Position numbers and translations under genes: made by a program. From Vairimorpha apis BRL 01 (taxonomy: Eukaryota; Microsporidia; Nosematidae): a DNA stretch of 16,802 nucleotides. The notes below the pieces were generated by a model. It worked only from the letters and a program-made list of their open reading frames with translations, was not told the DNA's origin and made no database searches. Numbering within the stretch: position 1 is the first letter of the stretch; the number at the start of each line of letters is the position of its first letter. Below are positions 1-15,195 of this stretch, piece by piece. The stretch covers positions 1-16,802 of the forward strand of contig KE647141.1 of assembly GCA_000447185.1 (NCBI GenBank), read 5' to 3'.

Positions 1-435
1 TTATTTATAAAACAGTTTTTAACTTATGTTTTAAATAAATTTTTTTATTTAATAAATTAATAAATTATTTTTATTCAAAAATGAAATTTAAAGATATAAT
101 ATGATATACAAAGCTCCATTTAAACAATCATCAAACGTCTTTTTTTTAATAATTTATATGTAAATATATATCCGCTATTTTCATATAAAATTTAGATTTA
201 AACAAATTATTTATTTTTTAAGAGAGTTTTAATATAAAAAAGATTCATATGTATTTATGAAAAAGAAAAAGATTTGAATATTTAAGAAAAATTATTTATA
301 ATAATGCTCAATAAATTCATTATTAAACTCTATAAATTTTTTAAGTAATTTTATGGCATCATTTTAATAAATCCTTCTTAATCATATTAAATATATTTTA
401 AAATAGCTATTTTGTTTTATAAAATTTCACCCCAT
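1..435. other. AT-rich intergenic / left flank
   Basis: No gene is supported here. The stretch is almost pure A/T with short T and A runs. On the - strand a 22-codon open stretch ends in a stop at 292-294. It could be joined by a one-base shift near 360-368 to an ATG at 385, giving a roughly 31-residue basic peptide, but stretches this short are expected by chance at this base composition. The last 10 bases hold the C-run start signal of the eS21 gene. Confidence 0.6.
430..433 (+). promoter_or_regulatory. CCCC start-proximal signal of the eS21 gene
   Basis: CCCC lies two bases before the ATG at 436. A C-run immediately upstream of the start codon is the known microsporidian signal and implies a near-leaderless transcript. 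It decides the start: the open frame runs further upstream, but the signal points to the ATG at 436. Confidence 0.7.
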
Positions 436-636
436 ATGTTTGAAAGACGAAATTGTTCATTTACTAAAAGACCAATAGCTTCATGTGATAAGAGCAGTGT
501 ACAGATTACACTTGCCGATATAGATGAGATAGGAAGACTTAATGGAAATATCACTACATTTGATGTATCCGGTGTTGTAAGAAAAAATGGTTTATCTGAT
601 AGTTACCTATATGATGCAATTAACAATGAAGAATAA
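436..636 (+). CDS. RPS21: 40S ribosomal protein eS21 (RPS21)
   Basis: Component of the small ribosomal subunit; in yeast and human eS21 sits on the solvent side near uS2 and is needed for 18S rRNA maturation. The 66-residue protein aligns through most of its length with eukaryotic eS21: the [11 protein letters not shown] segment matches the family's PRKCSATNRII region, followed by [24 protein letters not shown] and a VRKNGLSDS block equivalent to IRRMGESDD. Human eS21 is about 83 residues, so this copy lacks roughly 10 N-terminal residues and ends early, in line with microsporidian protein shortening. The frame is open to a TTG at 412, but the CCCC at 430-433 places the start at 436. It is the first gene of a + strand cluster, and about 96 bases separate it from MAT1. 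Confidence 0.9.
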
Positions 637-724
637 ATTATTATAAAATTTTATTATTTTTTTTAAGTTTTTCTTACATAACTTATAGGTTATAAAAATT
701 ATTTATTTATTCAAAAAAACAAGT

Positions 725-727
725 CCC
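725..727 (+). promoter_or_regulatory. CCC start-proximal signal of MAT1/TFB3
   Basis: TCCCTTAAA directly precedes the ATG at 733, with five bases between CCC and ATG. It has the same form as the signals at 1326, 2058 and 8958. Confidence 0.65.
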
Positions 728-732
728 TTAAA

Positions 733-1185
733 ATGTCTGATTCAAGATGTCCAATATGTAAAACAGATTCTTATTTGAATCCAGAAATGGTCCTTTATAT
801 AAGTCCTTGCTTTCATAAGATTTGTGAAAGCTGTATGATTAGAAATTTCAATGTTGGTAAAAACAAATGTTATGAATGTGGTATTGAATTAAGAAAAATT
901 AACTATATAACTTCTACATTTGAGGATATCGAAGTAGAAAAAGAGTGTAAAATAAGACGTCAATTCAATAAATATTTTTATAGAAATGAAGATGACTTTA
1001 ATGATATAGAAGAATATAATGATTATTTAGAAGAATACGAAAAATGTATTTATGAATTATGTGAATTTAAAAGTGAATCTTTAATTAAACAACGTATAAA
1101 TGAAATATTATTATCGGACTCGATTTTAAACAAAAAAATTGTTTTGGTTGCTGAAGAAATAAATGAAAATAGTTTGGAATTTTGA
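733..1185 (+). CDS. TFB3: CDK-activating kinase assembly factor MAT1/Tfb3 (TFIIH), N-terminal part
   Basis: MAT1/Tfb3 links the CDK7-cyclin H kinase to core TFIIH and stabilises the trimeric CAK complex in the nucleus. The protein opens with a C3HC4 RING finger: C6, C9, C26, H28, C31, C34, C46 and C49, with the family-typical CESC and YECG blocks. The MAT1-specific extension after the RING follows, at about residues 52-107: LRKINY, a FEDIEVEKE block, IRRQFNKYFYRNEDDF and EEYNDYLEEYE. This matches human LRKSNF, FEDPTVDKE and [20 protein letters not shown] very well. The frame stops after 150 codons, where the family runs to about 310 residues. The missing C-terminal motif is found just downstream in the next frame (1173-1319), so this is one gene with a one-base deficit near 1173-1185. 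The start is set by the CCC at 725-727. Confidence 0.9.
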   Translation: MSDSRCPICKTDSYLNPEMVLYISPCFHKICESCMIRNFNVGKNKCYECGIELRKINYITSTFEDIEVEKECKIRRQFNKYFYRNEDDFNDIEEYNDYLEEYEKCIYELCEFKSESLIKQRINEILLSDSILNKKIVLVAEEINENSLEF

Positions 1186-1319
1186 TTTTTAAAGAAGATA
1201 TTGAACCTATTATAAAGAAATGTAATGAAAATGTTTATCTACCATCTAAGTATTATGTAAAAAGTGAATGTGGAGGATTGTCTAAAAGTTTTATTATATC
1301 GTATTTACTTAAATATTGA
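1173..1319 (+). pseudogene. TFB3: Frame-displaced C-terminal tail of MAT1/Tfb3
   Basis: Directly after the TGA that ends the main MAT1 frame (1183-1185), another frame is open from 1173 to a TGA at 1317-1319, giving about 44 residues after the shift. It ends with SECGGLSKSF followed by an aliphatic stretch. Human MAT1 ends with a closely similar AGGYTSS block followed by a helix, the region that binds CDK7-cyclin H. Joining needs one extra base between about 1171 and 1185, for instance in the TTTT at 1180-1183. The next gene's signal begins 7 bases after this stop, so the C-terminus fills the gap between genes exactly. I call it part of a functional or recently broken gene; I cannot tell a sequencing undercall from a real mutation. 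Confidence 0.75.
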
Positions 1320-1325
1320 TATTAT

Positions 1326-1328
1326 CCC
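1326..1328 (+). promoter_or_regulatory. CCC start-proximal signal of the gene at 1336
   Basis: TCCCTTAATTA precedes the ATG at 1336; seven bases separate CCC from ATG. It falls immediately after the displaced MAT1 stop codon. Confidence 0.6.
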
Positions 1329-1335
1329 TTAATTA

Positions 1336-1929
1336 ATGTATATACAAACAATATATGGAACAAAATTTAAAATAAAAAATAATTTGAAAAAAGATGAAAT
1401 CATCAATGAAATAAGTAAAAAATTTGGATATGATAAATCTAAGATATATTTATATGATAATTTTTTTGGTGTTTTTAATACTAATAATTCATTTAAAAAA
1501 CATTTTAAACATTTAAAAAATAATCAGTTAAATTTAAACAGTGATTATGATTTTAAAACAAAGAATAAAACAACAGATAATTCCGAATCGAATGTATATT
1601 CTAAATATGGTGTACCTGATTACATTTATAATTATCATTTGCAAGAAGAACGACTAGATTATTTTTTGGATTATGAAAAAATGAAAATCGTATCTTATAT
1701 TCATATGAACATACCGGAAGAATTATCTCAAGATAAAAATTTAACTGCAAAAATTTTTAAACATTTTTTGTGTGAAAATAACCGAATAATAGAAGTTGAA
1801 CAAACAAATATTGATAGTTATGTAAGAGATTTTATAAATGAAGATTGGAAATCTTTTAATAAAGAAGATAAAGAAATAATTAATAAAAACTTAGAAGAAA
1901 TCATAAAAAACATATGTAAAAAAATATAA
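1336..1929 (+). CDS. Hypothetical protein with possible ubiquitin-like N-terminus
   Basis: I do not recognise this 197-residue protein. The C-run signal and its place in the + strand cluster support a real gene. Residues 1-42 have the order of a ubiquitin fold: a strand (YIQTIYG), a strand (TKFKIKN), a long amphipathic helix (KKDEIINEISKKFGYDKSKI) and a short strand (YLYDN). A low-complexity linker rich in Asn, Lys and Ser follows at about 50-85. A conserved-looking segment with PDYIYNYHLQEERLDYF and IPEELSQDKNLTAKIF lies at about 95-145, and the C-terminus is charged and helical. There is no membrane segment, signal peptide or Cys pair. Ubiquitin-like is inferred from the strand-helix pattern only. 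Confidence 0.7.
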   Translation: MYIQTIYGTKFKIKNNLKKDEIINEISKKFGYDKSKIYLYDNFFGVFNTNNSFKKHFKHLKNNQLNLNSDYDFKTKNKTTDNSESNVYSKYGVPDYIYNYHLQEERLDYFLDYEKMKIVSYIHMNIPEELSQDKNLTAKIFKHFLCENNRIIEVEQTNIDSYVRDFINEDWKSFNKEDKEIINKNLEEIIKNICKKI

Positions 1930-2057
1930 TAATGATAATATTATTTTTTCTTTTTACGATGTTTTGTAGTATTAACATATAAGTAAAAATTTTTTAGCTT
2001 AATTTTTGTAATGTGTTCATAAATTTTTTTAAATTATTTAAATATGTTTAAAATTCT

Positions 2058-2060
2058 CCC
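2058..2060 (+). promoter_or_regulatory. CCC start-proximal signal of the gene at 2063
   Basis: CTCCCTT directly precedes the ATG at 2063, with only two bases between CCC and ATG. It confirms that this ATG, not one further inside, is used. Confidence 0.6.
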
Positions 2061-2062
2061 TT

Positions 2063-2389
2063 ATGCAATATCAAAATTTAATAAAAAAAGAATTCGATTT
2101 TTGCATAAATAAAGATAAATCAAATGATTTTTTATTAAATGAATCAATAAAATATAATTTGAAAAATAATTTAAATTATAAGGAAATAAAAGTTATTTTT
2201 AATCTAATTTTAGAAAATTATAAGCTTTTTTTATTAGATGAAAATAAAGAATTTTCTGAGTACTATAAAATTGTTTTGTCAGATAAATCACAAAAATTAA
2301 TTTCTTTCACAATCAACGGTTGTATAATGTTTAGTGATATGATAAAGAAAATTTTTGTTGATGAAGATTTTTATGTTTTTTTAATATAA
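2063..2389 (+). CDS. Hypothetical protein, N-terminal part (frame continues at 2383-2772)
   Basis: Unrecognised. These 108 residues are soluble and mixed helix/strand: helical KEIKVIFNLILENYKLFLL at about residues 53-71, then strand-rich segments with KLISFTINGCIMFSD and EDFYVFLI. The reading frame ends at the TAA at 2387-2389, just after a run of seven T (2376-2382). In the adjacent frame coding continues with no gap through 2401-2772. That downstream frame has no C-run signal and opens without an ATG, so the two form one gene of about 236 residues lacking one base in the T run. The fused gene follows the 1336 gene after a 133-base spacer. Confidence 0.7.
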   Translation: MQYQNLIKKEFDFCINKDKSNDFLLNESIKYNLKNNLNYKEIKVIFNLILENYKLFLLDENKEFSEYYKIVLSDKSQKLISFTINGCIMFSDMIKKIFVDEDFYVFLI

Positions 2390-2772
2390 AAAATAAAGTT
2401 TTGTATGACACAAAAAAGAAAGATTTATTAAATAATATTTCAAGAATGTTTAATACGAAAAAAATAATTTTTATAGATTGGAATGTTTCAATAAACGTAT
2501 TTTTACAAAATGAAAAATTAGAAATGTTATTGTTTTACAAAAATAAATTTTATTTATTAAAAAGAATGAACATATTATACTGTAAAAACAATATATTAGA
2601 TTATTATAGTTACACGAATATATCCTATGTTCAAAATAAATGTGATTTGTGTGGTATTTTTAATTATGAATACGTAATTGAAGAAGATTTTGTTTTTAAA
2701 AGAAAGTTTAATAAATTTTGCAAAAAATGTTATAAAATTATTACTATTATACCATCATCTCTCAAAAAATAA
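2383..2772 (+). CDS. Hypothetical protein, C-terminal part with CxxC-x22-CxxC zinc site
   Basis: Continuation of the 2063 gene in the next frame. From 2401 it gives 123 residues. Near the end, four cysteines form CDLC and CKKC with 22 residues between the pairs (C81, C84, C107 and C110 counted from 2401), a plausible single structural zinc site. The rest is hydrophobic/basic alpha-beta sequence with aromatic-rich strands (KKIIFIDWNVSINVF, KLEMLLFYKNKFYLL). I found no family match. The frame begins with TTG at 2401 and is open back to the T run at 2376-2382. The nearest ATG in this frame is well inside, which argues against an independent gene. Confidence 0.65.
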   Translation, partial: NIKNKVLYDTKKKDLLNNISRMFNTKKIIFIDWNVSINVFLQNEKLEMLLFYKNKFYLLKRMNILYCKNNILDYYSYTNISYVQNKCDLCGIFNYEYVIEEDFVFKRKFNKFCKKCYKIITIIPSSLKK

Positions 2773-2819
2773 TGAGAAGTTAAATAAGAATAAAAATTAA
2801 AAACAAAAATATGTAATTA

Positions 2820-2978
2820 TTAATTTGTAAAAGACATTAATTTAAAAAAATTTACATCGTCTAAAATTTCTAAGATTTCATAATAAGATTCAAATTCATT
2901 ATATATATTTTGTAATATTTTGCATAAAACATAATTTTTACTTTTTAACATTTCAAGCTTATTTTCAAGATCATTTTC
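2820..2978 (-). pseudogene. Frame-displaced C-terminal tail of the coiled-coil protein
   Basis: Reading the - strand, the frame starting with GAA at 2978 is open to a TAA at 2822-2820, about 52 residues. It is acidic and coil-like at first (NDLENKLEMLKSKN), then has NEFESYYEILEILDDVNFF and ends MSFTN. Its character matches the coiled-coil protein just upstream, which stops early in its own frame at 2945. One missing base in the T runs at 2979-2989 (A runs on the coding strand) would join the two into a protein of about 148 residues. Confidence 0.55.
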
Positions 2979-3265
2979 TTTAATTTTTTATTTTTTATAC
3001 ATGTATATTGCTTGTTTATCTCATTTCTAAATTGAATGTGATTTTTTTTCATCTTATTCTCTAATTTTATATTTAAACTTTTTAACTTGTTATAATTAAT
3101 ATTAAGACTATTAAATTCTTCTTTAATTTTACATAACTCAACATTACAATCTATTAATCTGTTATTTGATTTATTTAATTCTTCTTTTAAATTATTATTA
3201 ATTGTATGTAATTTTTTATTATCTAATATTAATTCTTCTATTTTTGTATTATAATGTTCAAACAT
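2945..3265 (-). CDS. Small coiled-coil protein, function unknown
   Basis: These 106 residues are dominated by a coiled coil. From about residue 8 to 75, heptad-like spacing of Ile/Leu/Asn is seen in KIEELILDNKKLHTINNNLK, EELNKSNNRL and YNKLKSLNIKLENKMKK. There is no signal peptide or Cys pair. The last residues before the stop are Lys-rich and appear to be out of frame: the coil logically continues in the adjacent frame (2978-2820). Possible roles include a kinetochore, spindle-pole or tethering subunit, but nothing in the sequence chooses between them. The start at 3265 is preceded by TCCTT on the coding strand (3267-3271), a weak version of the C-run signal. Confidence 0.6.
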   Translation of the reverse strand: MFEHYNTKIEELILDNKKLHTINNNLKEELNKSNNRLIDCNVELCKIKEEFNSLNINYNKLKSLNIKLENKMKKNHIQFRNEINKQYTCIKNKKLKKMILKISLKC

Positions 3266-3525
3266 AAGGATAAAATTTAAAATTTTTTGTTTATTTTATA
3301 TATACTTATAATTGTGCGTTTATTAAAAAAATTAGAAGAAAATAGCATAAGCTATATTTATTACTCTTAAGAGTAGCGTACATCATAAAAAACATACGAC
3401 TTAAAACAAATATGTTTTTTATTGTCTCAGCTAGCATTGACTCTATCTCTGTAAAAACATCATTGATAGACAACCTCCTTTACGCAAGAACAACCCCTAA
3501 ATGAACAAAAAAATTTATATAAAAT
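3266..3525. other. GC-richer island, possible relic of a coding element
   Basis: About 3340-3500 is visibly richer in G/C than its surroundings. On the - strand it is open from just after a TAA near 3483 down to about 3313, reading LSINDVFTEIESMLAETIKN and continuing into a hydrophobic tail. It has no start codon or C-run. The complementary + frame is also open but looks less protein-like. The codon use (GAG, AAG, CTA) resembles the retroelement tails at 6115 and 7426 more than the local host genes, so a decayed mobile-element or horizontally acquired fragment is possible. No family is recognised. Confidence 0.3.
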
Positions 3526-3822
3526 TTATTTATTTTTTTTTAAAAAACCAAATAAATTTCCTTGTTTAGCTCTTTTTACTTCTGGCTTATTTTTTACAAC
3601 ATTTGTTTCTTCTGGTATATTTTTTTTAGTCTGAAAATACTTGTATATATCATCATAATTTTCTGTACTTAGAATATATAAAAAATCTCCAGAGTTCTTG
3701 CTTAGGCTTAATTTTGTTGTATTACCGACTTTATTTACATTTATAAATATTTTGTTGTATTTTGATAAATTATTACATTCCCAGTTTGAATCTCTCGTTC
3801 GAAAAATAGTTTCTTTTACCAT
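3526..3822 (-). CDS. Small protein with C-terminal PCNA-box-like motif
   Basis: 98 residues. The start is well supported: CCC (GGG at 3830-3832 on the + strand) lies seven bases before the ATG at 3822. Residues 1-66 look like a compact alpha/beta domain: a strand with IFINVN, KLSLSKNSG, FLYILS, and a helix YDDIYKYFQTKK. A polar linker (67-83) leads to KRAKQGNLFGFLKKNK, where Q87, L90, F93 and L94 fit the QxxhxxF(F/L/Y) pattern of a PCNA-interacting peptide with basic flanks. C-terminal PIP boxes are typical of small subunits of DNA polymerase delta, RNase H2 and similar replication proteins. The globular part also vaguely resembles the SRP9/SRP21 fold. Neither identity is established. Confidence 0.75.
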   Translation of the reverse strand: MVKETIFRTRDSNWECNNLSKYNKIFINVNKVGNTTKLSLSKNSGDFLYILSTENYDDIYKYFQTKKNIPEETNVVKNKPEVKRAKQGNLFGFLKKNK

Positions 3823-3829
3823 TTAAATT

Positions 3830-3832
3830 GGG
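3830..3832 (-). promoter_or_regulatory. CCC start-proximal signal of the gene at 3526-3822
   Basis: On the coding (-) strand the sequence is TCCCAATTTAAATG, with CCC seven bases before the start. It supports the ATG at 3822 and the - strand orientation of this gene. Confidence 0.6.
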
Positions 3833-4250
3833 ATTAAAGTTTAAATATTTTTTGTTAATTTTTAAATATTGTAAATATAATTTAAATCAAAAAACACAAT
3901 AAAAACATCATTGTTTTATTATGATAAAAAAAATTATTTTAATAAAAATGATTTTTATTTTTTAAATTAAAGAAAAATGAATAAATAAATGTTTTTTTGA
4001 TTATAATTATCAATAAAATACATAAATAAGAATAACTTACGAGATTAAATTTCACTATATAGATGAAATAAAATTTTAATTATATAAATACATTATAAAA
4101 ATGATAATATTAAAATATTCTTATTTTTTAATCAAAGTTTTATTTCGATAATAAATTTGAATTTTAAAACAGTGATAAAAATATAAAATTATATATATAA
4201 TTAATTTATAATCAAAATATTATTTATACATTTTTAAAAAAAAATTTATT
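3833..4250. other. AT-rich spacer, nothing recognised
   Basis: More than 400 bases of nearly pure A/T between two - strand genes. I see no open frame of interest, no C-run, no tRNA-like T-loop and no clear repeat. It includes the 3' flank of the lectin-like gene at 4251. Confidence 0.6.
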
Positions 4251-4787
4251 TTATATTTCATTATAAGGGTTTGCAGTAATTATGTTTGTAAATGATGGCG
4301 TATTTTCATGATTAATTGCACCAATTTCCTTAAAATCATCACTAATTTTAATTATAAAAAAATTTTGTTTTTTGTTATTTTTATCACATTTTTTTAATTC
4401 TAGAGGAATGTTATTATATGAATCTCTTTCTCCTTTTTCAAAGCATACATCATCTCTGAATATTTTATGATGATTTTCAATATATACAATCTGCCAATCA
4501 CTTGGTGCATATTGTCCTTTTTGTGTCATAACAAGTGTAGGATATTGACCTAAAACAAGTTCTCTAGAAAAATGTTCATTTTTAAATGTTGATATTCCTT
4601 TATTTTGTGTATCATATAAAAAAATATTCTCATCGTTGTTTTCCGAATTTGATGCTCTAAAATATAAACCATCAAATGTATTTTTTTCATTTTTAATATT
4701 TCTTAATTCCAATTCTTTATCCATTGTTAATATCTTAATTTTTACTTTAAATGAATAAATTATTAAAATGTAAAAAATATATTGCAT
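4251..4787 (-). CDS. Secreted ricin-B-like (beta-trefoil) lectin protein
   Basis: 178 residues. The first ATG (4787) gives a hydrophobic N-terminus (YIFYILIIYSF) that reads as a signal peptide, so secretion is inferred; a second ATG at residue 22 (4724) would remove it. The body resembles a degenerate ricin-B-type carbohydrate-binding repeat: SDWQIVY at 96-102 in the QxW position, then C115 ... LELKKC134 ... Q141-N-F143, the C-(x)n-L-x-L-x-x-C-(x)n-Q-x-F/W layout of one trefoil lobe. Only the lectin type of domain is seen, with no enzymatic chain. Families of secreted ricin-B lectins are known in Nosema and related genera and have been linked to spore adherence. No C-run precedes either possible start. 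It is a likely paralogue of the gene at 8115-8807. Confidence 0.7.
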   Translation of the reverse strand: MQYIFYILIIYSFKVKIKILTMDKELELRNIKNEKNTFDGLYFRASNSENNDENIFLYDTQNKGISTFKNEHFSRELVLGQYPTLVMTQKGQYAPSDWQIVYIENHHKIFRDDVCFEKGERDSYNNIPLELKKCDKNNKKQNFFIIKISDDFKEIGAINHENTPSFTNIITANPYNEI

Positions 4788-6114
4788 AGTTGAATAATTT
4801 CAAATTTTTTATACCTAAAAAATGTAAAACATGTTTCGAAAAAAATCACTAAAAATTATTAAATGATCCAAAATTTTAAAATATTTACAATTATCGCCAT
4901 TAGAATGATATTAATTTACGATCTAATTTTTTTGATAATATTACTGTGCCAATTTAAATGATGTAATATCTTAATATCAGCATAATTGCAAAAAAAAGAA
5001 CATATCTTTTTTTATTATTTTATTATGTTATATTCATTATTAGAATTTTTTTTTAAATAGTATATTATTTTATATTTCATATAAATTTTTCTATAGTTAT
5101 TATTTTGATGTTTTTTATTTCTTTTATTTTTTATTTTCTAAATATAAACAATTTAAAAGTTTATTACTTTTCACTATTTAGATTCATTTAATATATGTCG
5201 AAATTTAAAATTGAAAAAAATATAATTTAAATCAATTACAAAAAACAAAAGTTTGTATTTTTTAAATATATTTAGATAGATTTACGATCCTAAGTTTACC
5301 TATTTTGGTATTATGTTACTATCACTTCTTTTATTATTATATAAGATAATGATTTTGTCAAGTAATAAATCAAAAGATTGTACATATTGATTTTTTATTT
5401 TCTAAAAAATTTATTAATTTTGATTTTAAATATTTTAACAATTGATTTTTTTTATCATATTTTTTTATTTAGTTAATATAATTGTATTTATATTAATATC
5501 TAATTTTTAAGACTTATCCTTTTAAGTTTATTAAGACTTAATTTTTTTAAGCTACTTATAACATAGAAGTAAATTTTAAATCTAAATATTTTGTTATTTT
5601 TACTCAGTGTAGAAATTAAAAGCTTAAACACATTTAATATAAAATAATCTAATGTTTGTTCATGTATTAAATAATAGCATAATATCATATTTTTTTTATA
5701 AATATGTAAATATAATGTAGAAATCAAAATTTGCATTCTTTCTCACCTTATTATTTACTTTTATAATGCATGTATAAAATTTCTTATTGTTTTAAATTTA
5801 TTTTTACATAGATTTAGTTTTCAGTTTATGAATAATCTTATTTATTTAATATAATGATAGTTGTGCAATTTATTAAAACCGTTAAGTTATCATTTTTAAT
5901 TATCTTATATCATTATTTTACCTACTCTAAGTAAAAAAAATAAGAATTTATTTCTTTGACAGTATTAATGATTGCTTCAAATGAATTGTTTCTAGATTTA
6001 TTTAAGTATTTATACTTTTTTAAAACTTAAATTTAACTTAAAACTAATAATGTTTAGTTTTTTCTCTTTAAATTTATATAAAATAAAAAAAGTATTTTAA
6101 TTATAATTAAAAAT
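4788..6114. other. 1.3 kb AT-rich spacer, no supported gene
   Basis: Very long for a microsporidian intergenic region. It holds only low-complexity A/T sequence with short T runs. The longest open frame (5500-5736, - strand, 78 codons) is Leu/Ile/Lys/Tyr-rich, lacks a C-run and looks like a by-product of base composition, though a small secreted or membrane peptide is not excluded. No structural RNA is recognised. The spacer may be decayed mobile-element DNA next to the retroelement tail at 6115. Confidence 0.5.
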
Positions 6115-6550
6115 GTAGAGATTAGAGTAGACACCAGGATACCAACCGGTATCAAAGTGAAATATAATAAACCTGACGTTTATATTTTAGATAAAATAAA
6201 AAAGAGATATTAATCGTTGAAGTAGGAATAACCAGTTTCGATAACTTACAAGCTGTAGAAACGGAAAAAAAGCATAAATATGATCTGCTTGCCAATCATT
6301 GTGGTGCAATGCATGGATATAAAACAAAAATTATACCATATGTTAAGACATGGGAGGGAATAGAAACAACTTTCCACAAACAATACAGGAATGTGCTAAA
6401 TATAAACAGCCGAACACAGGCATACGTACAAGCCAGAGTGCTTAAGATGACTCTAGAGAGTCTCTCTATGGAAGTCCTAAGAGGCAAGTATATTACGGAA
6501 AGTGAACAGGAGGTTAATGAGTTAGAAAATTTAGAATCACATAAATGAGA
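6115..6550 (+). mobile_element. 5'-truncated non-LTR retrotransposon tail (restriction-like endonuclease domain), copy A
   Basis: Decayed C-terminal part of a LINE-type polyprotein. The first frame (6115-6210) reads VEIRVDTRIPTGIKVKYNKP then D, giving the family's K-P-D triad at about 6169-6177. After a frame break near 6207-6213 the next frame gives LIVEVGITSFDNLQAVETEK with the paired acidic residue (GAA at 6219), then KYDLLAN, KTKIIPYVKTWEGIETTFHK and a stop at 6546-6548. The KPD ... (D/E) ... K..KY..L arrangement is that of the restriction-like endonuclease at the C-terminus of R2/R4/CRE-type non-LTR elements. No reverse transcriptase remains; 5' truncation is normal for this class. G+C is higher than the surroundings. 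The open part from 6309 to 6548 should not be taken as an independent gene. Confidence 0.75.
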
Positions 6551-7425
6551 AAGTCGCCTATATCTACTTGTGACAATATATAAATTATTGAAAAACACTA
6601 TACCCTAATAAATATTTTCTTCAATTATAATTATATGTTTTCAGTAAAATTTTAATAATTTCATATAATCTGATTTTTCACTGAAATATTATATAAAATA
6701 AAATTGAAATAAATCATATATGCTTTTTAAAGATTTAAATATCTTAAACAAAATTAAATAATTTATTAAATGTTAATTTAAAATATATAAATTTTGTATT
6801 ATATTTATACATTTTTTATTAAAATAAATAAAACAAAAAATTGTTTATAGAACATTAAAATAAAAAATAAATTTTAATATATTTGTATTGGTTTTTATTT
6901 GATAAAATTAAAAAATATTATAATAATTTAAACAAAAAAATAATATATTAATTTTTAACATTGTAATTTAGATATTACCTTAGTATAAGTTTCAGACTAT
7001 ATAAGTATTTCTTTCCAATATAATGATTAATAGTTTTTTATTTAAATTTTAAATAATCTTTCAAAATATATATTGCTTAATTTAGAATGTTTTGTTTATT
7101 TAAAACAACATTAAATTTTTTATTCTATTTTATTTTTCTAAAAAAAATTCTTAGTATGTATAACTTAATCATATAAATTATAGTTTTTTATTACTATAAA
7201 TATTAAAAAAATTTATAAAATTAACTTACTTTTCAATAGTGTTTTTATTTTTTTAATATGATATATAAAAATGATTTTTATATATATAAATTTTATAAAC
7301 AATTATATTAAATATTTATATCAATAAGAATAAAAATTATTTACGATTGTAAAATGAAAAACTTTTTATTTGAGGGTTAATTTTATTATTCTATTATTTT
7401 TTTTCCGCTTCCGTATCAAACGAGT
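6551..7425. other. AT-rich spacer between facing retroelement tails
   Basis: Nearly 0.9 kb separates the two retroelement 3' ends. About 6551-6605 may be 3' untranslated retroelement sequence, since it is less AT-rich, and 7395-7425 is the corresponding 3' flank of copy B. The middle is low-complexity A/T with no open frame or repeat I can support. Confidence 0.5.
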
Positions 7426-7781
7426 TCACTTGGTATGTAAGTTTTCGTTCCTCTCGTTCTCCGCTAATATTAAATCGTCTCCTCTTCTATACTCCATAGA
7501 CACATACTCAAAAGTTTTTTTAAGAGTTACTGATTGGATATATGCTTCGATTCGGTCTAAGATTTCTAGCGCCTTTTTGTATTTTGCGTGGTATTTAGTG
7601 ACTATACCATCCCATGTTAGCACATATGGAATTATCCTTGTTTTAACCCGTGTAGTAATCATAGCTCATTAGCTAACAGATCGTACTTTCTTAGTTTTTC
7701 TGTCTCTACTTGTTGAAGGTTGTCAATAGATGTGACCCCTATTTCAACTATAAGAATTTCTCTAGATTTTTTATCTATATT
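7426..7781 (-). mobile_element. 5'-truncated non-LTR retrotransposon tail, copy B (inverted)
   Basis: Second C-terminal retroelement fragment, on the opposite strand. From 7781 downward it reads NIDKKSREILIVEIGVTSID, then NLQQVETEKLRKYDLLANEL and a stop at 7661-7659. After a frame change it continues from 7662 with TRVKTRIIPYVLTWDGIVTK, YHAKYKKALEILDRIEAYIQ, YVSMEYRRGD and a stop at 7426. It aligns residue for residue with copy A (IIPYVKTWEGIETTFHKQY versus IIPYVLTWDGIVTKYHAKY), but with many substitutions, so the two derive from different subfamilies or old insertions rather than a recent duplication. The KPD part present in copy A is missing here. The antisense open frame at 7370-7672 is a shadow. 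Confidence 0.75.
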
Positions 7782-8114
7782 GTAAAATGAATAACATATA
7801 TTAAACATATATTTTTAAAAAATTTAAAAGTAATTAAGGTATTAAATATCATGTTAAAGCTATATAAATGTTAAAAACCTAAATAGAATTTATTTTTATT
7901 AATATTTTTTTATTAATGATTTAAATTGTATATATTAAATAATTCAAAATTTGTTTTAATCAAATAAAATTATTTTTTTAGATAAAAAAATTGATGCTTT
8001 TTTAACAAATTAAAATAGTTTATAAAAAAATTATCAACAGACAAATTTCATATTTTCGCATAAAATAATAAATAATATATATGTTTAAATATATCAGAAA
8101 ATTAAATAAAATAT
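7782..8114. other. AT-rich spacer, nothing recognised
   Basis: About 330 bases of low-complexity A/T between the retroelement tail and the 3' end of the lectin gene. No open frame, C-run or RNA-like structure is seen. Confidence 0.6.
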
Positions 8115-8807
8115 TTAATTACTTTCAACAGGTAAGTAATATTGTTTAGTTAAATCAACTATTGTGTTATGATCAAGTCTACTATCTCCATGACCAAATT
8201 GAAACAATGCCCTCATTTCTCCTATAGAAGTAGCATATTTAACAGGTCCTGTTTCTTCACTCATAACAGTTATTATTACTTTTGTTGGTGCAGAGGAATG
8301 ACGAAGATGTTGTCTTAATTCAGGTAATCCTCCGCTTGAATAAGGACCACCTAATTCAAATTCTGAATACATATTATTTGTTCCTTTTTCATAGGTAAAC
8401 AATTGCGGATATTTGTCTGTATTACATGGCATAGCATAAACATTGTGTTGTCCAGGCTTATCAGCTTTACCTAAAGTTAGGCACAAATCTTTTGTTTGAA
8501 ATTTCCAATATCCATTTTCTGCATGTAAATTCCATTTTGTATTATTAACACCATTTTCACACAGCATAACACGATATGGTACATTTTTTTCATCAATACA
8601 TAACTCTTTACCTTGAATTTTAAACACTTGTTTTTGCTCGTCATATTCAATAAGTTCCATTTCTTTTTCATCTTTAATAATATCCAAATTAGCAAAATAA
8701 ACTTTTCCTTCTCTAAGTGTTGCTAATCTTAATTTATCGTTTCCTTTAGGTGTAATTTCTCCAGTCAATGCTAATGTATATTTAAGTAAATGTAAAAAAG
8801 TAAACAT
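8115..8807 (-). CDS. Secreted ricin-B-like (beta-trefoil) lectin protein
   Basis: 230 residues beginning with a signal-peptide-like stretch (MFTFLHLLKYTLALTGE), so probably secreted or routed to the spore surface. Two trefoil lobes can be seen. The first is KELC70 ... RVMLC83 ... T90-K-W92-N-L, the second KDLC109LTLG ... VYAMPC128 ... Q135-L-F137. Each has the Cys-(x)n-Cys pair and QxW-type position of ricin-B carbohydrate-binding domains; an N-terminal lobe at about 20-66 is weaker. The C-terminal 85 residues (from about 146) leave the lectin pattern, contain a polar SSGGLPELRQHLRHSS segment, and are unrecognised. No catalytic toxin chain is present. It shares layout with the gene at 4251 and is longer. 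Its start lacks the C-run signal of the housekeeping genes, and codon use is somewhat less AT-extreme. Confidence 0.8.
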   Translation of the reverse strand: MFTFLHLLKYTLALTGEITPKGNDKLRLATLREGKVYFANLDIIKDEKEMELIEYDEQKQVFKIQGKELCIDEKNVPYRVMLCENGVNNTKWNLHAENGYWKFQTKDLCLTLGKADKPGQHNVYAMPCNTDKYPQLFTYEKGTNNMYSEFELGGPYSSGGLPELRQHLRHSSAPTKVIITVMSEETGPVKYATSIGEMRALFQFGHGDSRLDHNTIVDLTKQYYLPVESN

Positions 8808-8957
8808 ACATTTAATTTGTTATGATGTTTTTATATTGTAAAGTTTCATTTTTGAAACAAACGTTTTTAATTTAAAACATGATTTTTGTAAACGTAGAAA
8901 AAAATACGAAATTAAAATAAAGTAATTTTAACAAAATTTCAAATTTTTTTTTCATAA

Positions 8958-8961
8958 CCCC
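8958..8961 (+). promoter_or_regulatory. CCCC start-proximal signal of the uL11 gene
   Basis: AACCCCTTAA directly precedes the ATG at 8966; four bases separate CCCC from ATG. It is a strong example of the start-proximal signal in this window. Confidence 0.7.
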
Positions 8962-8965
8962 TTAA

Positions 8966-9463
8966 ATGAACAAAGGAAAACAAGATACAGGAGAAGTAAA
9001 ATTTCTAAAAATTCAAGTTATTGGAGGTGAATTACCGGGTCCTGTTTTGGCTCAAAAAGCAGCTTCTTGGGGAATACAAATTAAAAAGGTTGGTGAGGAT
9101 ATAAAAGCAGCAACTGCAGAATATAAAAGTTTAAAAGTACTTGTAGGACTCACAGTTGAAGGAGGAAAAGCTACTGTCGAAGTTTTACCAGCTACATCTA
9201 CTTTGATAATTAAAGCTTTAAGGGAAGCACCAAGAGATAGAAAAAAAGTTAAGAATATTAAACATGATGGAAATCTACAAATTAGTGATGTTATTGAAAT
9301 TGCAAGAAAAATAAGAAGTAGATCATTTAGTAAAAAATTTAGTGGAACTGTAAAAGAAGTTTTAGGAACATGTTTTTCGGTAGGTTGTACTGTTGAAAAT
9401 AAAACTCCTATGCAAATAATTGCTGAAATTAATAATGGTGAAATAAGAATTCCAGATGAATAA
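8966..9463 (+). CDS. RPL12: 60S ribosomal protein uL11 (RPL12)
   Basis: uL11 forms the base of the ribosomal P-stalk and contacts the GTPase-associated rRNA and elongation factors. The 165-residue protein matches eukaryotic RPL12 in length and throughout: KKVGEDIKAATAEYK, LTVEGGKATVEVLPATS and LIIKALREAPRDRKK, then KNIKHDGNLQISDVIEIAR, SGTVKEVLGTCFSVGC and a short acidic end. It is odd in one place: residues 28-37 read LAQKAASWGI where typical eukaryotic copies have LAPKIGPLGL, so the proline-rich switch segment between the two domains has lost its prolines. The N-terminus carries a short charged extension. The start is fixed by the CCCC at 8958. It stands alone between long spacers. Confidence 0.95.
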   Translation: MNKGKQDTGEVKFLKIQVIGGELPGPVLAQKAASWGIQIKKVGEDIKAATAEYKSLKVLVGLTVEGGKATVEVLPATSTLIIKALREAPRDRKKVKNIKHDGNLQISDVIEIARKIRSRSFSKKFSGTVKEVLGTCFSVGCTVENKTPMQIIAEINNGEIRIPDE

Positions 9464-11321
9464 AATTTATTTATATTATATTTTATAATTAAAATTTATT
9501 TAACGTACATTAAAATATATATTTAGTTTATTTTCAATTTAAATTAAAATTTAATGGCAAAATACATTTCATATATTTATATTAAATTTTCTTATTTGTT
9601 TATATAATTATATATTAATATATAGTATTTTAAACTTTAAATCAAAAATTTTATTAAAGTTATAATAAAATTATATTATGTTTTTTGTAAAATATTTGTT
9701 TTTAAAAACTTAAATGTAGTTAATAATTTTCGTGAAAAAAATAATTTATAATTATATGAACCACAAAAATTATATTCAATATCTTTTGATTGTAATTTTT
9801 TTTGTATAGATTTTAAATTTAATATAGAAAAATGACACTTTTAATTTTTTATGTTTTATTTAAGAGATGTTATATTTAAGTTTTAAATTTTAAACTTAAA
9901 CTGCTTAATAATATATTTTCATAAAGTTTAAAGACTATTAAAATATAAAACATTTTTAAATTCAAAATTATTAAATTAATAATTAAAGAATATATACAAT
10001 AAATTAAATCTTTTTTTACAACAAAAGTTTAATAAATAAATTGACATTTATACAACTTTTCTAATTAATAAAAACTAAAATTAAAAATTATTAAATATCA
10101 AATATTTATTTAATAGAAAAATTTATTATATCTAAATTATATTGATTTAGTTTAAACAATTAATCTTCAAAAAATTTTATCGAACATTGATATTTTGAAA
10201 TTAAGATTTGTTTAATTAAGTTTTAAATTATTGTAAAATGTAAAAATATTTTTTAATTTCAATTTTATAAATTATAAACTTTAATATAATAATTTTGATA
10301 GTTTTAAATATAATTGTTTTAATTATTATATTTAAAAAAATTTAAAATTATAAAAAAAGTATTATGCATCAATTTTAAATATTTATCATATATTTAAATT
10401 ATTTACAATTTTTTAATTTTTATTCAATTGTAAAAACATTTTATAAATAACAAATTTATGCATTTTTTTGCAACACCAATCAATAGAAAACAAGAATTTT
10501 TTTTTGATTTTTACACAATTATATACAAAATTTTTTACATTTATTAATATAAATTGTAAACTAGATATTAAAAATATATACAATGAAAATTATAATTATA
10601 AAATAATTATAAATTCATATAATCAGTTAAAAAATATTAAATTTATAATTCTAGTTCGTAAATAATTGAATCTTTAACAAATTTTTTTTTAATTAATATT
10701 GACATGTTGATAAAAATTTTGATTTTAAAATTTTTGCTTTAAAAATGAAATAAAATTAGTTTATTATTTTATCTAAATTATTTTTATATAATATAAAAAA
10801 ATATCAATTTTTATTTTAATTATAAAAGTTTATTAAAGCAAATGAGTAAAATAACAAGTAACAGTAGTATTTTAATATTAAAATAAATTTAAAAAATTTT
10901 ATAAAAATAAATGAAAGATTTAAAGAACAATTTTATATTTTTTGTATTCATTATAAAAAATTTAGCCATAAAACATAATCTACTTAATTTTTTAATACGT
11001 TTAAATTTTATGTTTTATTAAAATATAATGCAATTTAAATATCATTAAATTTTTTAATTTTTTTAGTTTTGATTTTAAATTAATTGTAATTTATCTATTT
11101 TTGCAAAAATTACTATATTTTCTTAAATCAAATAAATAAATAAATTAAATCAACACGTAATATTATTTTAATATACAAAACAAAAATAAGTTTTAAATTT
11201 ATTTTTAACCAATTAAGTTATAAATTAAAATTTAAAACTGTTTGTGACAAATTATAATATTTGATAGTTTATAACATATACAGGTTGATTTGTAAACAAT
11301 AATTTTTTTTCTTTAAATAGA
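9464..11321. other. 1.9 kb AT-rich spacer, no supported gene
   Basis: Extremely A/T-rich sequence with frequent A and T runs. An open frame at 10468-10665 (+, 65 codons, TTG start) is composed almost only of Asn, Ile, Lys, Phe and Tyr and is rejected. A - strand stretch from about 9816 to 9676 is open for 46 codons with slightly more varied residues but no start or C-run. At this composition such lengths are expected by chance. No tRNA or other RNA gene is recognised. Confidence 0.5.
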
Positions 11322-11326
11322 CCCCC
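11322..11326 (+). promoter_or_regulatory. CCCCC start-proximal signal of SIN3
   Basis: ACCCCCATATG has two bases between the C-run and the ATG at 11329. It is the longest C-run in the window and fixes the SIN3 start. The spacing matches that of the eS21 gene (ACCCCATATG). Confidence 0.7.
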
Positions 11327-11328
11327 AT

Positions 11329-12110
11329 ATGTCTAATAATATGGATAACTCTAACATTCAAGAAAACGAAAAAAGAGTAGATCAAAATAAAAGATTTAAT
11401 GATGATAAGCCTGCACATCAAGAATATTCTGAAAGCAATCATCATTTTGTTCCACAGATGACTCACGGTTTAATACCTGTTAGTAGACAAGAAGATAATT
11501 TATACATGCAAAATGTTAATGTTTCTAAACCTCCTATTCCTGAGGACGCAGAAGTATGTGATGCTATGAATTTTTTAAATCGTATAAAAAATGAATTTTC
11601 AGAAGATTTAGTTACATATGATAATTTTTTAGAAACTATGAGAGATTATAAATTTGGTAAAATTGATGCTGATGAGGTTTGTAAAGCAGTAGTATTACTT
11701 TTTAAAGACAAATCTCATCTGATTGATCTTTTTAACGAATATTTGCCAAATCATTTAAAATTTCCTCCTGATAATAGAAAGAATGAATTCATGGCAAGAA
11801 ATTTTGAAAGAATGTCTTTAAATCAACAACATCCACAATTTAGACGTAATTTTATTAATCAAAAAATTATGCATCCTGGGTTGAGACCAATGATGCCTAA
11901 AATGGGTCCTCCTCCCCATTTACAACATCAACCTTCTCATTTAAGTGGACTTCTTCCAGGAATGGTTCCTGGTTTTGCTCCCACAAACATACCTCATCCA
12001 AATTCACAATCTCAAATAAGAATACCTCCTCCAAATGTTCAAAAAATCAATCCTAATAGTTATAATTTAAATGCTCCGCCGAAAACTGAAGATGAGACTA
12101 TAAAAAAAAA
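11329..12110 (+). CDS. SIN3: Sin3 transcriptional corepressor, N-terminal segment (PAH1)
   Basis: Sin3 is the nuclear scaffold that brings the Rpd3/HDAC1 histone deacetylase to DNA-bound repressors. This segment starts with a polar, Asn/Asp-rich region. It then carries the first paired amphipathic helix at residues 74-144: EVCDAMNFLNRIKNEFSEDL, YDNFLETMRDYKFGKIDADE, LLFKDKSHLIDLFNEYLP, the typical four-helix PAH pattern. A linker at about 180-250, rich in Pro, Met, His and Gln, follows. The frame stays open to 12270, but the 53 residues after the A9 run at 12102-12110 are out-of-frame readthrough: the true continuation is in the next frame. One missing A at that run separates this segment from PAH2. 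Confidence 0.88.
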
Positions 12111-13580
12111 CAAGCAAATGATTTTATACAGCGAGTCAAAAAACGATATTATAATCAACCAAATGTATATAAAACATTTGTGGAAATTTTACAAAAATTT
12201 AATAATGAAAGTAATATATCTGCTATACGGGCCGAAGTTGGAAGTTTATTGTTTGAAAATCAAGATTTAATTGATGATTTTGAAAAAGATTTCATAACAG
12301 AAGTTAAAATTAAGAATGAAGATAATGATTCTATTTTTAAACAACTTTGCAAAGAAATTGAAGATAAAAATATATACGATGAATTTTTGAGAATTTTAAA
12401 GTTTTTTAATCAAAATTTTATATCAAAAACCGATTTATTGTTACTAGTAATACCTATATTAAAAGATGAACGACAAATTAATATATTTAAAGATTTTATT
12501 AATGAGAAAGACATTAAAGAGGAAGTTGTAAATAAATATGAAAATTGTAGGAAATTTGGATCTTATAGAATTTTACAAAATGAAATTCAAAATACTAATC
12601 AAGATGCTATTGCGAGAGAAGTACTTAATACTACATGTGTTTCATGTCCTACATTCGATTCTGAAGATGCTACTTTTGTATTTTTAAAAAGAAATATGTT
12701 TGAAGATACAATTTTTAGAGCTGAAGATGATCGTTCAGAAGCAAGTCTAGTTATTGAAAGATTAGACTTTTTAATAACATCATTAGAAATAGTATATTCT
12801 AATCTTGGAACTGATGAACTATCAATAAAAGATATTGGTATGTCACCTGGAATTATTAAAGAAGTTTTAAAAAATATTTATGATGAATCAGCTTCAGAAA
12901 TTTTAGAAGGTATATTAATAAATCCAAAAAAGGCAATTCCTATATTAATAAAAAGACTTTATGCAGTAAACAAAGATTTAAGAGAAAAATTAAGACAAAA
13001 ACATAAAGTTTGGAATGAACAAGTTGAAAGAGCATATTTCAAAGCTCTTGATACTAATGGTTTGTATTATAAAAATATTGAGAAAAATAACTTTTCAATT
13101 AAGGTTTTAGCTCAAGAAGCAGATGATGGTTTTGAGCAAGATTTTTCAGATACAAAAATAATTAAAGATATAGCTGACCTTTTTAAAATTTTTATAAAAA
13201 TAAATCAGAATGAAAATAAAAGGATTAATATGTCATCATTTTCAAAAACAGTTGATTTAATTTTCGACATTATATTTAAAAATGTTGAATTTACTGCAGA
13301 TTTCAATATCTTTTGTGTTTATAGATATATTTTTTATGTGTATGAAAAAATAAAAGAAATAAAAGATTTAAATCTTAAATCAATCAAATCATCACAATTG
13401 GCTGTTAATATGAACCTAATTCAAGAATATGATGTAGAAAATAGATTTGAAGAATTACTTAATCAAATAAAACTTTATTTTGAAAAAGAAATCGAACCAT
13501 CTGAATACGAAGAATCTGTTCGAATATTAACAGATTGCAAAGGATATAAATTGTATAATATAAAAAAAGTTTTTTTCTAA
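12111..13580 (+). CDS. SIN3: Sin3 corepressor, central segment (PAH2, PAH3, HDAC-interaction domain)
   Basis: Continuation of SIN3 in the next frame. Directly after the A9 run it reads ANDFIQRVKKRYYNQPNVYK then FVEILQKF and EVGSLLFENQDLIDDFEKDF, a full PAH2 (12111-12300). A third PAH-like unit with SIFKQLCKEIEDKNIYDEFL and LKDERQINIFKDFI lies at about 12330-12500. The Sin3 HDAC-interaction domain follows at about 12537-12825: CRKFGSYRILQNEI (family GPSYRLLP), REVLNTTCVSCPTF (family EVLNDTWVSVPSW), FVFLKRNMFEDTIFRAEDDR and an ERLDFL helix. The remainder is helical C-terminal Sin3 sequence. The GTG at 12180 is not a start. The frame ends at 13580 beside another homopolymer pair (A7 at 13562-13568, T7 at 13570-13576), with coding continuing in the next frame. 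Confidence 0.88.
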   Translation, partial: QANDFIQRVKKRYYNQPNVYKTFVEILQKFNNESNISAIRAEVGSLLFENQDLIDDFEKDFITEVKIKNEDNDSIFKQLCKEIEDKNIYDEFLRILKFFNQNFISKTDLLLLVIPILKDERQINIFKDFINEKDIKEEVVNKYENCRKFGSYRILQNEIQNTNQDAIAREVLNTTCVSCPTFDSEDATFVFLKRNMFEDTIFRAEDDRSEASLVIERLDFLITSLEIVYSNLGTDELSIKDIGMSPGIIKEVLKNIYDESASEILEGILINPKKAIPILIKRLYAVNKDLREKLRQKHKVWNEQVERAYFKALDTNGLYYKNIEKNNFSIKVLAQEADDGFEQDFSDTKIIKDIADLFKIFIKINQNENKRINMSSFSKTVDLIFDIIFKNVEFTADFNIFCVYRYIFYVYEKIKEIKDLNLKSIKSSQLAVNMNLIQEYDVENRFEELLNQIKLYFEKEIEPSEYEESVRILTDCKGYKLYNIKKVFF

Positions 13581-13837
13581 AATTGAAAAATCGATCATTT
13601 TCTGTAATTGAAAATGAAGAATCAATAAATTATCTTAATGTTTTGTCATTTGATCAAGAATCTGATGATGCATTAATATTTAGTTTTAAAAATAATTTAT
13701 TTATTGTTAAATCGTCTAAATCATTTGAAAGTTATTCTGATGGTGAAATTACATATGGTGAAGGGGAGTTCGCTGAAGAGAGTAATTTAAAAGACGATTT
13801 TGTATCAAAAAAGACTAAAAATGATAATGATGAATAA
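13577..13837 (+). CDS. SIN3: Sin3 corepressor, C-terminal segment
   Basis: Last part of SIN3, again in the neighbouring frame. It needs one extra base in the A7/T7 runs at 13562-13576, giving VFFLKLKNRSFSVIENEE in continuous reading. It contains NYLNVLSFDQESDDALIFSF, then KNNLFIVKS and an acidic, Ser-rich end with EGEFAEES and a basic tail. This resembles the generic C-terminus of Sin3 proteins, where short helices are followed by an acidic tail, but it has no diagnostic motif. It has no C-run or separate ATG at its beginning, so it is unlikely to be a gene of its own. Joined, SIN3 would be about 835 residues, much shorter than the yeast protein of about 1500. Confidence 0.65.
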   Translation, partial: LKLKNRSFSVIENEESINYLNVLSFDQESDDALIFSFKNNLFIVKSSKSFESYSDGEITYGEGEFAEESNLKDDFVSKKTKNDNDE

Positions 13838-15195
13838 AACAATAAAAATGTGATAGTAAAATTATATTTAATTTTTTTAATTTATTTATTTTTGAGATTT
13901 ATTTAGAATGAAATTTAATTTCTTTTTTTACCTTCATTAATTAATAATAATTTCATAATTGTAAAATAACGTTAATATTGTTGTAATAAATTATTTTTTA
14001 TATACACATTTCAAATTTTATAAAATTTTTTAGTTAAATAAACTAAATTTTATTAAAATTACACTAACATAAGAAAATTTTTTTTACTTAATTATTTGAT
14101 TATCATTTATTTTGAAAATATTAATTTTATTTATAAAGTAAGTAATGAGGAATAAAATTTTGGTTTAAAATCTACATTTTATAGTTAATGTAAAAATAAT
14201 TTATTACATCTTTAACGAAAATTAAAATATACATTTTTACACTAAAAATGATATTTTGTAAGTATAAAAAATAATACATTTAATTATAGTATGAAATTAA
14301 TTTTTAATTTATTTTTGATTAAAAAAATATTTTTTTATTATTTATAAATTTAATTTTATTTAAAAATAACTTTTTTAACAATAAAATATTATTCAAATTT
14401 TTTTTTAAATACATAAACAAACTATATTAATAAGATTTAAATGTAATTAATATTAAAAAACATTCAAAATTTTTCAATGAAAATAAGATTTTTAAAAATT
14501 TTAACCTATATCTTTATTAATTTTATATTTATAATATATTATTCAGAAAATTACATATTTTTGATATTTCAAAAATAATTATTGATTATAAATAGTTATA
14601 AAATTAATATTTATAAAAGTTGAAAAAAATAAAAATACCATAATCAAATATAAAGAATGCTAAACATCCATGTCATCGTTATAAAAAAAAATTGATATTT
14701 TCTTTTTATTTTCATTAAATTTAACTAATATAAGTATATAATTATGCTTCAAAAATTTACTTCAATAACAAAAAATTAAAACAAAATATCTCTAAATTTA
14801 TTTTGCATATTTAAATATATAATTTTTTAAAAATTATAACATTAAAGTTAAATTATTTACTTTAAAATTGACGTAATTCTTATAAAAAATGTAAAATAAT
14901 CAATTTTTACTATTAATTTTTATTTTTTAAATAATATATTTATTATTAAAAAAAATAAATGTAAAATTAATCTGTAAAATTAAAAAATATAAAATATAAA
15001 ACTATGATAAACATTTTCTTAACATTAAATAAATAAGAAATCGATATCTTAAAATTATTTTTAATAAAAATTAAAAAAAATTACGACATAAAAATCATGT
15101 TATTTAAAATTAACGCATTTTAAAATTTCTATTTTATTATCATATTTTCTTGATGAGTTATCCCTTTTCGTAATCATTAATTTTATATTAAATAT
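13838..15195. other. 1.4 kb AT-rich spacer, no supported gene
   Basis: Nearly pure A/T with many A and T runs. A TCCC at about 15160-15163 is the only C-run, about 45 bases before the kinase start. No open frame of note, RNA gene or repeat is recognised. Confidence 0.55.

What the first reader, a model, noticed from the sequence alone, without database searches (positions are those of the whole stretch)
733..13837. Five same-sign one-base breaks at or beside A/T homopolymers in four genes
MAT1 (near 1173-1185), the CxxC gene (T7 at 2376-2382), the coiled-coil gene (runs at 2979-2989) and SIN3 (A9 at 12102-12110; A7/T7 at 13562-13576) each continue in the neighbouring frame. Every case is repaired by adding one base, never by removing one, and the breaks are at A/T runs. 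The continuation keeps family domains in MAT1 and SIN3. Systematic homopolymer undercalling fits best. The biological alternative is real deletions rescued by polymerase slippage on long A/T runs, as described for AT-rich insect endosymbionts, which would be new for a microsporidian. The kinase and ribosomal genes contain comparable runs without breaks.
Basis: partly seen in the sequence, partly recalled or inferred. Interest (0 to 1): 0.75.

Follow-up and report, generated by a model that had tools for sequence, protein, structure and literature searches.

The report
Assembly indel errors splitting microsporidian genes
The broken reading frames in this contig of a microsporidian parasite are best explained as ordinary sequencing and assembly errors at A/T runs, because a second contig of the same assembly and database proteins show at least two of the genes unbroken at those places.

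Summary
The frame changes are in the letters, but are best read as consensus errors. Yet MAT1 and the SIN3 3' end each carry two EXTRA T's; the CxxC-gene break is a T missing beside the T7, not in it; SIN3 A9 fits a one-base shortfall; the coiled-coil break could not be adjudicated. The assembly holds window 1-3665 a second time, at the end of contig C78: there MAT1 is open and the CxxC break absent, while other frames are altered. Database proteins P0010 and P0048 are continuous and match sometimes one contig, sometimes the other. In 25 sampled stretches 48 breaks were called in 35,892 codons, 40 of the minus-one class; 28 of 48 lie at A/T runs of 6 or more. Between overlapping contigs A/T run lengths disagree in 10 of 3839 runs of 1-2 bases but 6 of 15 of 8 or more. 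Homopolymer consensus error, mostly but not only undercalling, explains this; slippage rescue is not needed, but is not excluded for SIN3 A9 and four breaks present in both copies.

The parts
733..1182 (+). MAT1 (CDK-activating kinase assembly factor), first frame piece; RING and MAT1 domains
   Evidence: Pfam MAT1 E 1.8e-16; residues 1-150 identical to P0010
1180..1190 (+). MAT1 break: T4 and T5 runs, each one T longer than in contig C78
   Evidence: contig comparison; two extra bases in frameshift-aware alignment to P0010 and to P0011
1188..1316 (+). MAT1 C-terminal piece in another frame
   Evidence: 100% to P0010 residues 152-194
1336..1926 (+). Unnamed gene, open from ATG in the window; contig C78 differs by one base near its start and one near its end, which changes its frame there. 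No database protein tells which copy is right
2063..2769 (+). CxxC gene (weak SNAPC3 resemblance of its second piece, below the Pfam cut-off), in two frames
   Evidence: P0048 is a continuous 236-aa homologue, 98% identical; Pfam
2373..2375 (+). CxxC gene break: one T fewer than in contig C78; neighbouring T7 unchanged
   Evidence: one missing base
2820..3262 (-). Coiled-coil gene with a frame change in a T6/T6 tract at about 2982-2996; same letters in contig C78
11329..12108 (+). SIN3 N-terminal piece (PAH domain)
   Evidence: 92% to P0001 residues 1-260; Pfam PAH
12102..12110 (+). SIN3 break 1: A9, one base short against relatives
   Evidence: one missing base at 12101-12107 in 6 of 6 relatives aligned, of 9 found
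12102..13574 (+). SIN3 middle piece (PAH, Sin3_corepress, Sin3a_C)
   Evidence: 90% to P0001; Pfam
13570..13603 (+). SIN3 break 2: two extra T's, one at T7 and one at the T4 near 13600-13603
   Evidence: two extra bases at these places in 5 of 5 relatives aligned, of 9 found
13604..13834 (+). SIN3 C-terminal piece
   Evidence: P0001 tail match in frame +2, to 13834
1..3665 (+). Stretch that overlaps the end of contig C78 (10375-14030) at 99% identity; 47 differing columns of 3670, 26 of them in window 1-320

Best explanation
The window is one contig of a draft assembly of an AT-rich Nosema/Vairimorpha microsporidian (Nosema apis or a close relative, inferred). Its consensus carries single-base length errors in A/T runs. 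Shown: breaks in the genome sample are more often of the shortfall class, but both signs occur; several are private to one contig where two contigs cover the same DNA; in this window frames change in MAT1, the CxxC gene and SIN3. Inferred: the split genes are intact in the organism and make ordinary full-length proteins, and the consensus is poor near contig ends. No slippage or recoding mechanism is required.
For: An open MAT1 copy on contig C78 of the same assembly (206-aa frame, no stop). Window 1-3665 and C78 10375-14030 are two versions of one stretch, differing at 47 of 3670 columns; C78 is in turn broken at the start of the CxxC gene, where the window is open. P0010 (194 aa, 6 member sequences on 6 contigs) and P0048 (236 aa, 3 member sequences) are continuous. 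At all five places in these two genes where the contigs differ, the proteins match the window at two (986-987, 2081-2083) and C78 at three (1183-1190, 2373, 2564). Genome sample: 48 breaks in 35,892 codons in 25 stretches; 28 of 48 have an A/T run of 6 or more within the 19 bases around them against 10.2% of 5,000 random coding positions. Planted single-base changes were recovered in 118 of 171 deletions and 96 of 171 insertions, none with the wrong sign. In three pairs of overlapping contigs, A/T run-length disagreement rises from 10 of 3839 (runs of 1-2) to 10 of 39 (7) and 6 of 15 (8 or more). Precedent: the Nosema ceranae 454 assembly paper reports 58 cases of adjacent ORFs joinable by assuming a one-base frameshift error (PMC2685015, passages).
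Against: Four breaks in contig overlaps are the same in both contigs: the coiled-coil gene and three in C42/C50. These could be reproducible undercalls or real. SIN3 has no second copy found in the assembly and its nearest continuous relative is 90% identical, so it was judged from other species or strains. P0010 and P0048 come from a collection labelled 'lgn' (read here as assemblies of public read sets, recalled); whether some of the same reads lie behind them is unknown. P0048 also differs from both contigs at one residue (14). Pairs of overcalls (MAT1, SIN3 3' end) are unexpected if errors strike independently. Differences between contigs include substitutions (28, 14 and 7 columns in the three overlaps), some of which may be true allelic variation. 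Break density did not differ clearly between shorter and longer contigs (38 in 24,152 codons up to 17.1 kb against 10 in 11,740, p 0.09; cut chosen by me) and was not over-dispersed (chi-square 23.4, 23 df). No reads were available.
Confidence: 0.93

Rival explanations
1. The overlapping contigs are alleles of a diploid or tetraploid parasite, and each allele carries real private indels, so that a broken gene may have an intact partner.
For: Contig copies also differ by substitutions, among them four transitions close together in C51/C52. A 2025 study of forty microsporidian genomes deals with tetraploidy (PMC12558613, title, start of abstract and passages).
Against: Both copies of a gene can be broken at different places (CxxC gene in C78 and C79; C51 and C52). 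The database proteins match a mosaic of the two contigs rather than one of them. All three overlaps found end at contig ends, as unmerged assembly overlaps would.
Confidence: 0.04
2. Real one-base deletions in long A/T runs, rescued by RNA polymerase slippage as in Blochmannia and Buchnera.
For: Minus-one bias and concentration at A/T runs of 6 or more in the sample; four breaks shared by both copies of an overlap; SIN3 A9 is a fairly long run.
Against: MAT1 and the CxxC gene are in frame at these places in another contig and in database proteins; their breaks lie in T4/T5 and in a T2 read as T1, runs too short for efficient slippage (general knowledge); 20 of 48 sampled breaks have no A/T run of 6 or more in the 19 bases around them.
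Confidence: 0.02
3. True pseudogenes.
For: Frames are interrupted.
Against: MAT1 and CxxC pieces are 98-100% identical to continuous homologues on both sides of the breaks, and the two larger SIN3 pieces 90-92%, the third 62%; MAT1 and SIN3 are core transcription proteins (general knowledge); an open MAT1 copy exists.
Confidence: 0.01

Closest known systems
Homopolymer-linked frameshift errors in draft microsporidian assemblies, e.g. the 454 assembly of Nosema ceranae (PMC2685015, passages seen)
   Same: AT-rich Nosema genome; adjacent ORFs of one gene joined by assuming single-base frameshift errors; homopolymer runs named as prone to sequencing error
   Different: The platform and accession of the present assembly are unknown; here overcalls as well as undercalls are seen
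Slippage-rescued frameshifts at poly(A) tracts in Blochmannia and Buchnera (as described in PMC3017870, passages seen; Tamas and others 2008 seen only in its reference list)
   Same: One-base indels at A/T tracts in otherwise conserved genes of an AT-rich intracellular organism
   Different: There some frameshifts are conserved between populations and species; here the two genes that could be tested against near-identical database proteins are continuous there, and several breaks are private to one contig

Membership tests
Assembly consensus indel error | Unbroken version present in other data or in another contig | tested here: met
   MAT1 and CxxC gene; not tested within the species for SIN3 and the coiled-coil gene
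Assembly consensus indel error | Break private to one contig of an overlap | tested here: met
   Private: MAT1 and CxxC in C79, C51 3136, C52 1394 and 2586, C42 3185, C50 1104 (seven). Shared: coiled-coil, and C42/C50 1336, 2343, 4274 (four). Unclear: C51 2474, because the model ends one ORF and starts another near there in C52
Assembly consensus indel error | Run-length discordance rises with run length | tested here: met
Assembly consensus indel error | Raw reads support the unbroken frame | not testable with these tools
   no reads
Pure homopolymer undercalling | All errors are shortfalls within long runs | tested here: not met
   MAT1 and SIN3 3' end have extra bases; the CxxC shortfall is outside T7
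Slippage-rescued frameshift | Frameshift fixed in the organism's DNA | tested here: not met
   not met for MAT1 and the CxxC gene; not settled for SIN3 and the coiled-coil gene
Slippage-rescued frameshift | Long uninterrupted tract at the break | tested here: inconclusive
   SIN3 A9 yes; MAT1 and the CxxC gene no
Slippage-rescued frameshift | Mixed-length mRNA | not testable with these tools
   no RNA data
Programmed ribosomal frameshift | Frame change conserved at the same place in relatives | tested here: not met
   the relatives aligned (six for SIN3, two for MAT1, one for the CxxC gene) are continuous proteins, five of the six SIN3 ones across both breaks (P0002 ends at the second)

The most novel reading that the evidence does not exclude
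The breaks present in both copies of a contig overlap (coiled-coil gene; three in C42/C50) and the SIN3 A9 break are real short runs in the parasite's DNA, read through by transcriptional slippage, which would be a eukaryotic parallel to the Blochmannia/Buchnera cases.
Probability: 0.03. Interest if true: 0.7.

Novelty: not a real feature. Interest (0 to 1): 0.1.

Why it matters
It is mainly a caution: at roughly one detected frame break per 750 codons in the sampled stretches, gene, pseudogene and intron calls made on this assembly need checking against other data before any gene loss is claimed. If the shared breaks were real, the parasite would be a eukaryotic case of slippage-dependent gene expression.

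Tried and rejected
A single one-base shortfall at MAT1 and at the SIN3 3' end was considered and rejected, because the alignment with two extra bases scored best in each relative aligned and, for MAT1, the C78 letters show it. A dependence of break density on contig length was tested and not established (p 0.09). The continuous CxxC protein P0048 gave no Pfam family at E 0.1 or better, although the second-frame piece alone gave a weak SNAPC3 match below the cut-off. Identifying the exact assembly failed: it does not fit the published N. apis statistics (a coordinate of 116,096 on C206 exceeds the largest published contig of 75,980, and the only N runs in the sampled letters are single long stretches at the start of six of them). 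Literature: six answered searches, each listing at most 20 papers; I saw no report of slippage rescue in a microsporidian in those listings, and read only passages of six papers (PMC11592040, PMC3726280, PMC2685015, PMC12558613, PMC3017870, PMC8206274).
Full report
What the window is. It is the whole of contig C79 of an unnamed assembly of 5,960,447 bases in 223 contigs. Window G+C is 19.3%; the 25 sampled stretches (221,431 unmasked bases) come to 18.8% from the base counts, and 76 long ORFs to 25.0%. The Nosema apis genome paper gives 18.78% and 25% (PMC3726280, passages). The N. apis forward 18S primer of that paper matches exactly at C70 14227-14246, and the reverse primer with one mismatch lies at 13978-13997; the span is 269 bases, the published product size. 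So N. apis or a close relative is likely; this is inference, and the assembly does not fit the published assembly statistics.

The frame changes. That arithmetic hides different things. A protein-to-DNA alignment that allows frame changes at equal cost in both directions gives: MAT1, two extra bases against P0010 (1183 and 1190) and against P0011 (1165 and 1190), the two of 38 homologues that were aligned; CxxC gene, one missing base at 2373 against P0048, its only homologue found; SIN3 at 12101-12107, one missing base in 6 of 6 relatives aligned; SIN3 3' end, two extra bases at 13575-13581 and 13603 in 5 of 5 aligned. Of the nine SIN3 relatives, P0007-P0009 were not given and P0002 ends at the second break. 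P0003 and P0004 added four and two further shifts in poorly conserved downstream sequence. The coiled-coil gene had no homologue to compare with.

A second copy in the same assembly. P0010 finds an open MAT1 frame at C78 11103-11684. C78 10375-14030, its end, matches window 1-3665, its start, at 99%. The aligned pair has 47 differing columns of 3670: 28 substitutions, 14 bases only in C79 and 5 only in C78; 26 of the 47 fall in window 1-320. At MAT1 the C78 runs are one T shorter at both places. At the CxxC gene C78 has one more T before the G, and T7 is unchanged. C78 is itself broken at the start of the CxxC gene, where the window agrees with P0048, and its frame is altered near the start and end of the gene at 1336-1926, for which no database protein tells which copy is right. 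The coiled-coil tract is the same in both. SIN3 has no second copy found.

Database proteins. P0010 (194 aa, 6 member sequences on 6 contigs) and P0048 (236 aa, 3 member sequences) are continuous. At the five places in these genes where the contigs differ, they agree with the window at 986-987 and 2081-2083 and with C78 at 1183-1190, 2373 and 2564; at residue 14 P0048 agrees with neither. A mosaic of this kind is expected if each contig has private errors, less so if each contig is an allele. Both come from a collection labelled 'lgn'; whether they rest on wholly separate reads is unknown. For SIN3 the best relative, P0001, is continuous but 90% identical over the middle piece, so it does not test this isolate.

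How general it is. A codon-usage dynamic programme with equal penalties for both signs was run over 25 stretches, 260,832 bases including 39,401 masked: 48 breaks in 35,892 codons, 40 of the minus-one class and 8 of the plus-one class. It missed the MAT1 and CxxC breaks, ending and restarting genes there; it counts the coiled-coil break twice (C79 and C78); and two of its five calls in C79 (7472, 7666) lie in a repeated element that may be truly decayed. Others may lie in repeats too; this was not checked. Codon-shuffled controls gave 9 new breaks in 106,404 codons. The bias held at penalties 8, 10, 13 and 16 (63:14, 40:8, 20:3, 9:0); at 20 no breaks were called. Planted changes were recovered in 118 of 171 deletions and 96 of 171 insertions, all with the right sign, so detection favours deletions somewhat but not fourfold. 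28 of 48 breaks had an A/T run of 6 or more in the 19 bases around them against 10.2% of 5,000 random coding positions. Density showed no clear link with contig length and no over-dispersion, which neither helps nor hurts much.

Searches with three further stretches that were rich in breaks found two more overlaps of contig ends, C51/C52 and C42/C50; the third, C12, had only a 115-base match at its start besides repeats. C51 was called at 2474 and 3136, C52 at 1394 and 2586. Three of these four coincide with a run-length difference private to one contig; for C51 2474 it is unclear, since in C52 the model ends one ORF and starts another near there. C42 and C50 share three breaks (1336, 2343, 4274 in C42) and have one private each (3185; 1104). 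Over the three overlaps (window 1-330 left out) A/T run lengths disagreed in 10 of 3839 runs of 1-2, 19 of 806 of 3-4, 4 of 136 of 5, 10 of 81 of 6, 10 of 39 of 7 and 6 of 15 of 8 or more; a few of these are runs split by a substitution.

Reading. Length errors in A/T runs of the consensus, with a bias to shortfalls, explain the window and the sample. The N. ceranae assembly paper met the same problem (58 cases; PMC2685015, passages). Slippage rescue as in Blochmannia (PMC3017870, passages) is contradicted for MAT1 and the CxxC gene. It is not formally excluded for SIN3 A9, the coiled-coil tract and the three breaks shared by C42 and C50, where a reproducible undercall is the simpler account.

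Noticed in passing
window 6105-6670 (+) and 7207-7829 (-): Two members of repeat families with dozens of listed matches across the assembly, mostly 75-95% identical (40 of 199 candidates were scored), carrying ORFs of 117 and 79 aa without a Pfam match; the second is itself broken. Possibly ends of a mobile element (recalled impression, no call names it).
   Followed up: partly
window 8115-8804 (-) and 4251-4721 (-): The first ORF resembles a ricin-B-type lectin domain (Pfam E 3.5e-6, just below the family cut-off); the second has no Pfam match at E 0.1.
   Followed up: no
window 3526-3819 (-): 98-aa ORF ending in QGNLFGFLKKNK, which resembles a PCNA-binding (PIP) motif (recalled, not tested).
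   Followed up: no
G000 C201 54929-55940: An RNA polymerase second-largest-subunit domain is matched in two pieces in different frames, so another core gene may be split; only one such gene was found, which may mean an incomplete assembly or a limited first look.
   Followed up: no
G000 C70 13043-15169 and C133 17965-19190: 18S primer sites recur 923-957 bases apart; three primer-to-primer spans are 269, 268 and 269 bases, which suggests repeated or misassembled rDNA pieces.
   Followed up: no
G000 C51/C52 overlap, C51 2065-2246: Four transitions in 182 bases between the overlapping contigs look more like allelic variation than run-length error.
   Followed up: no
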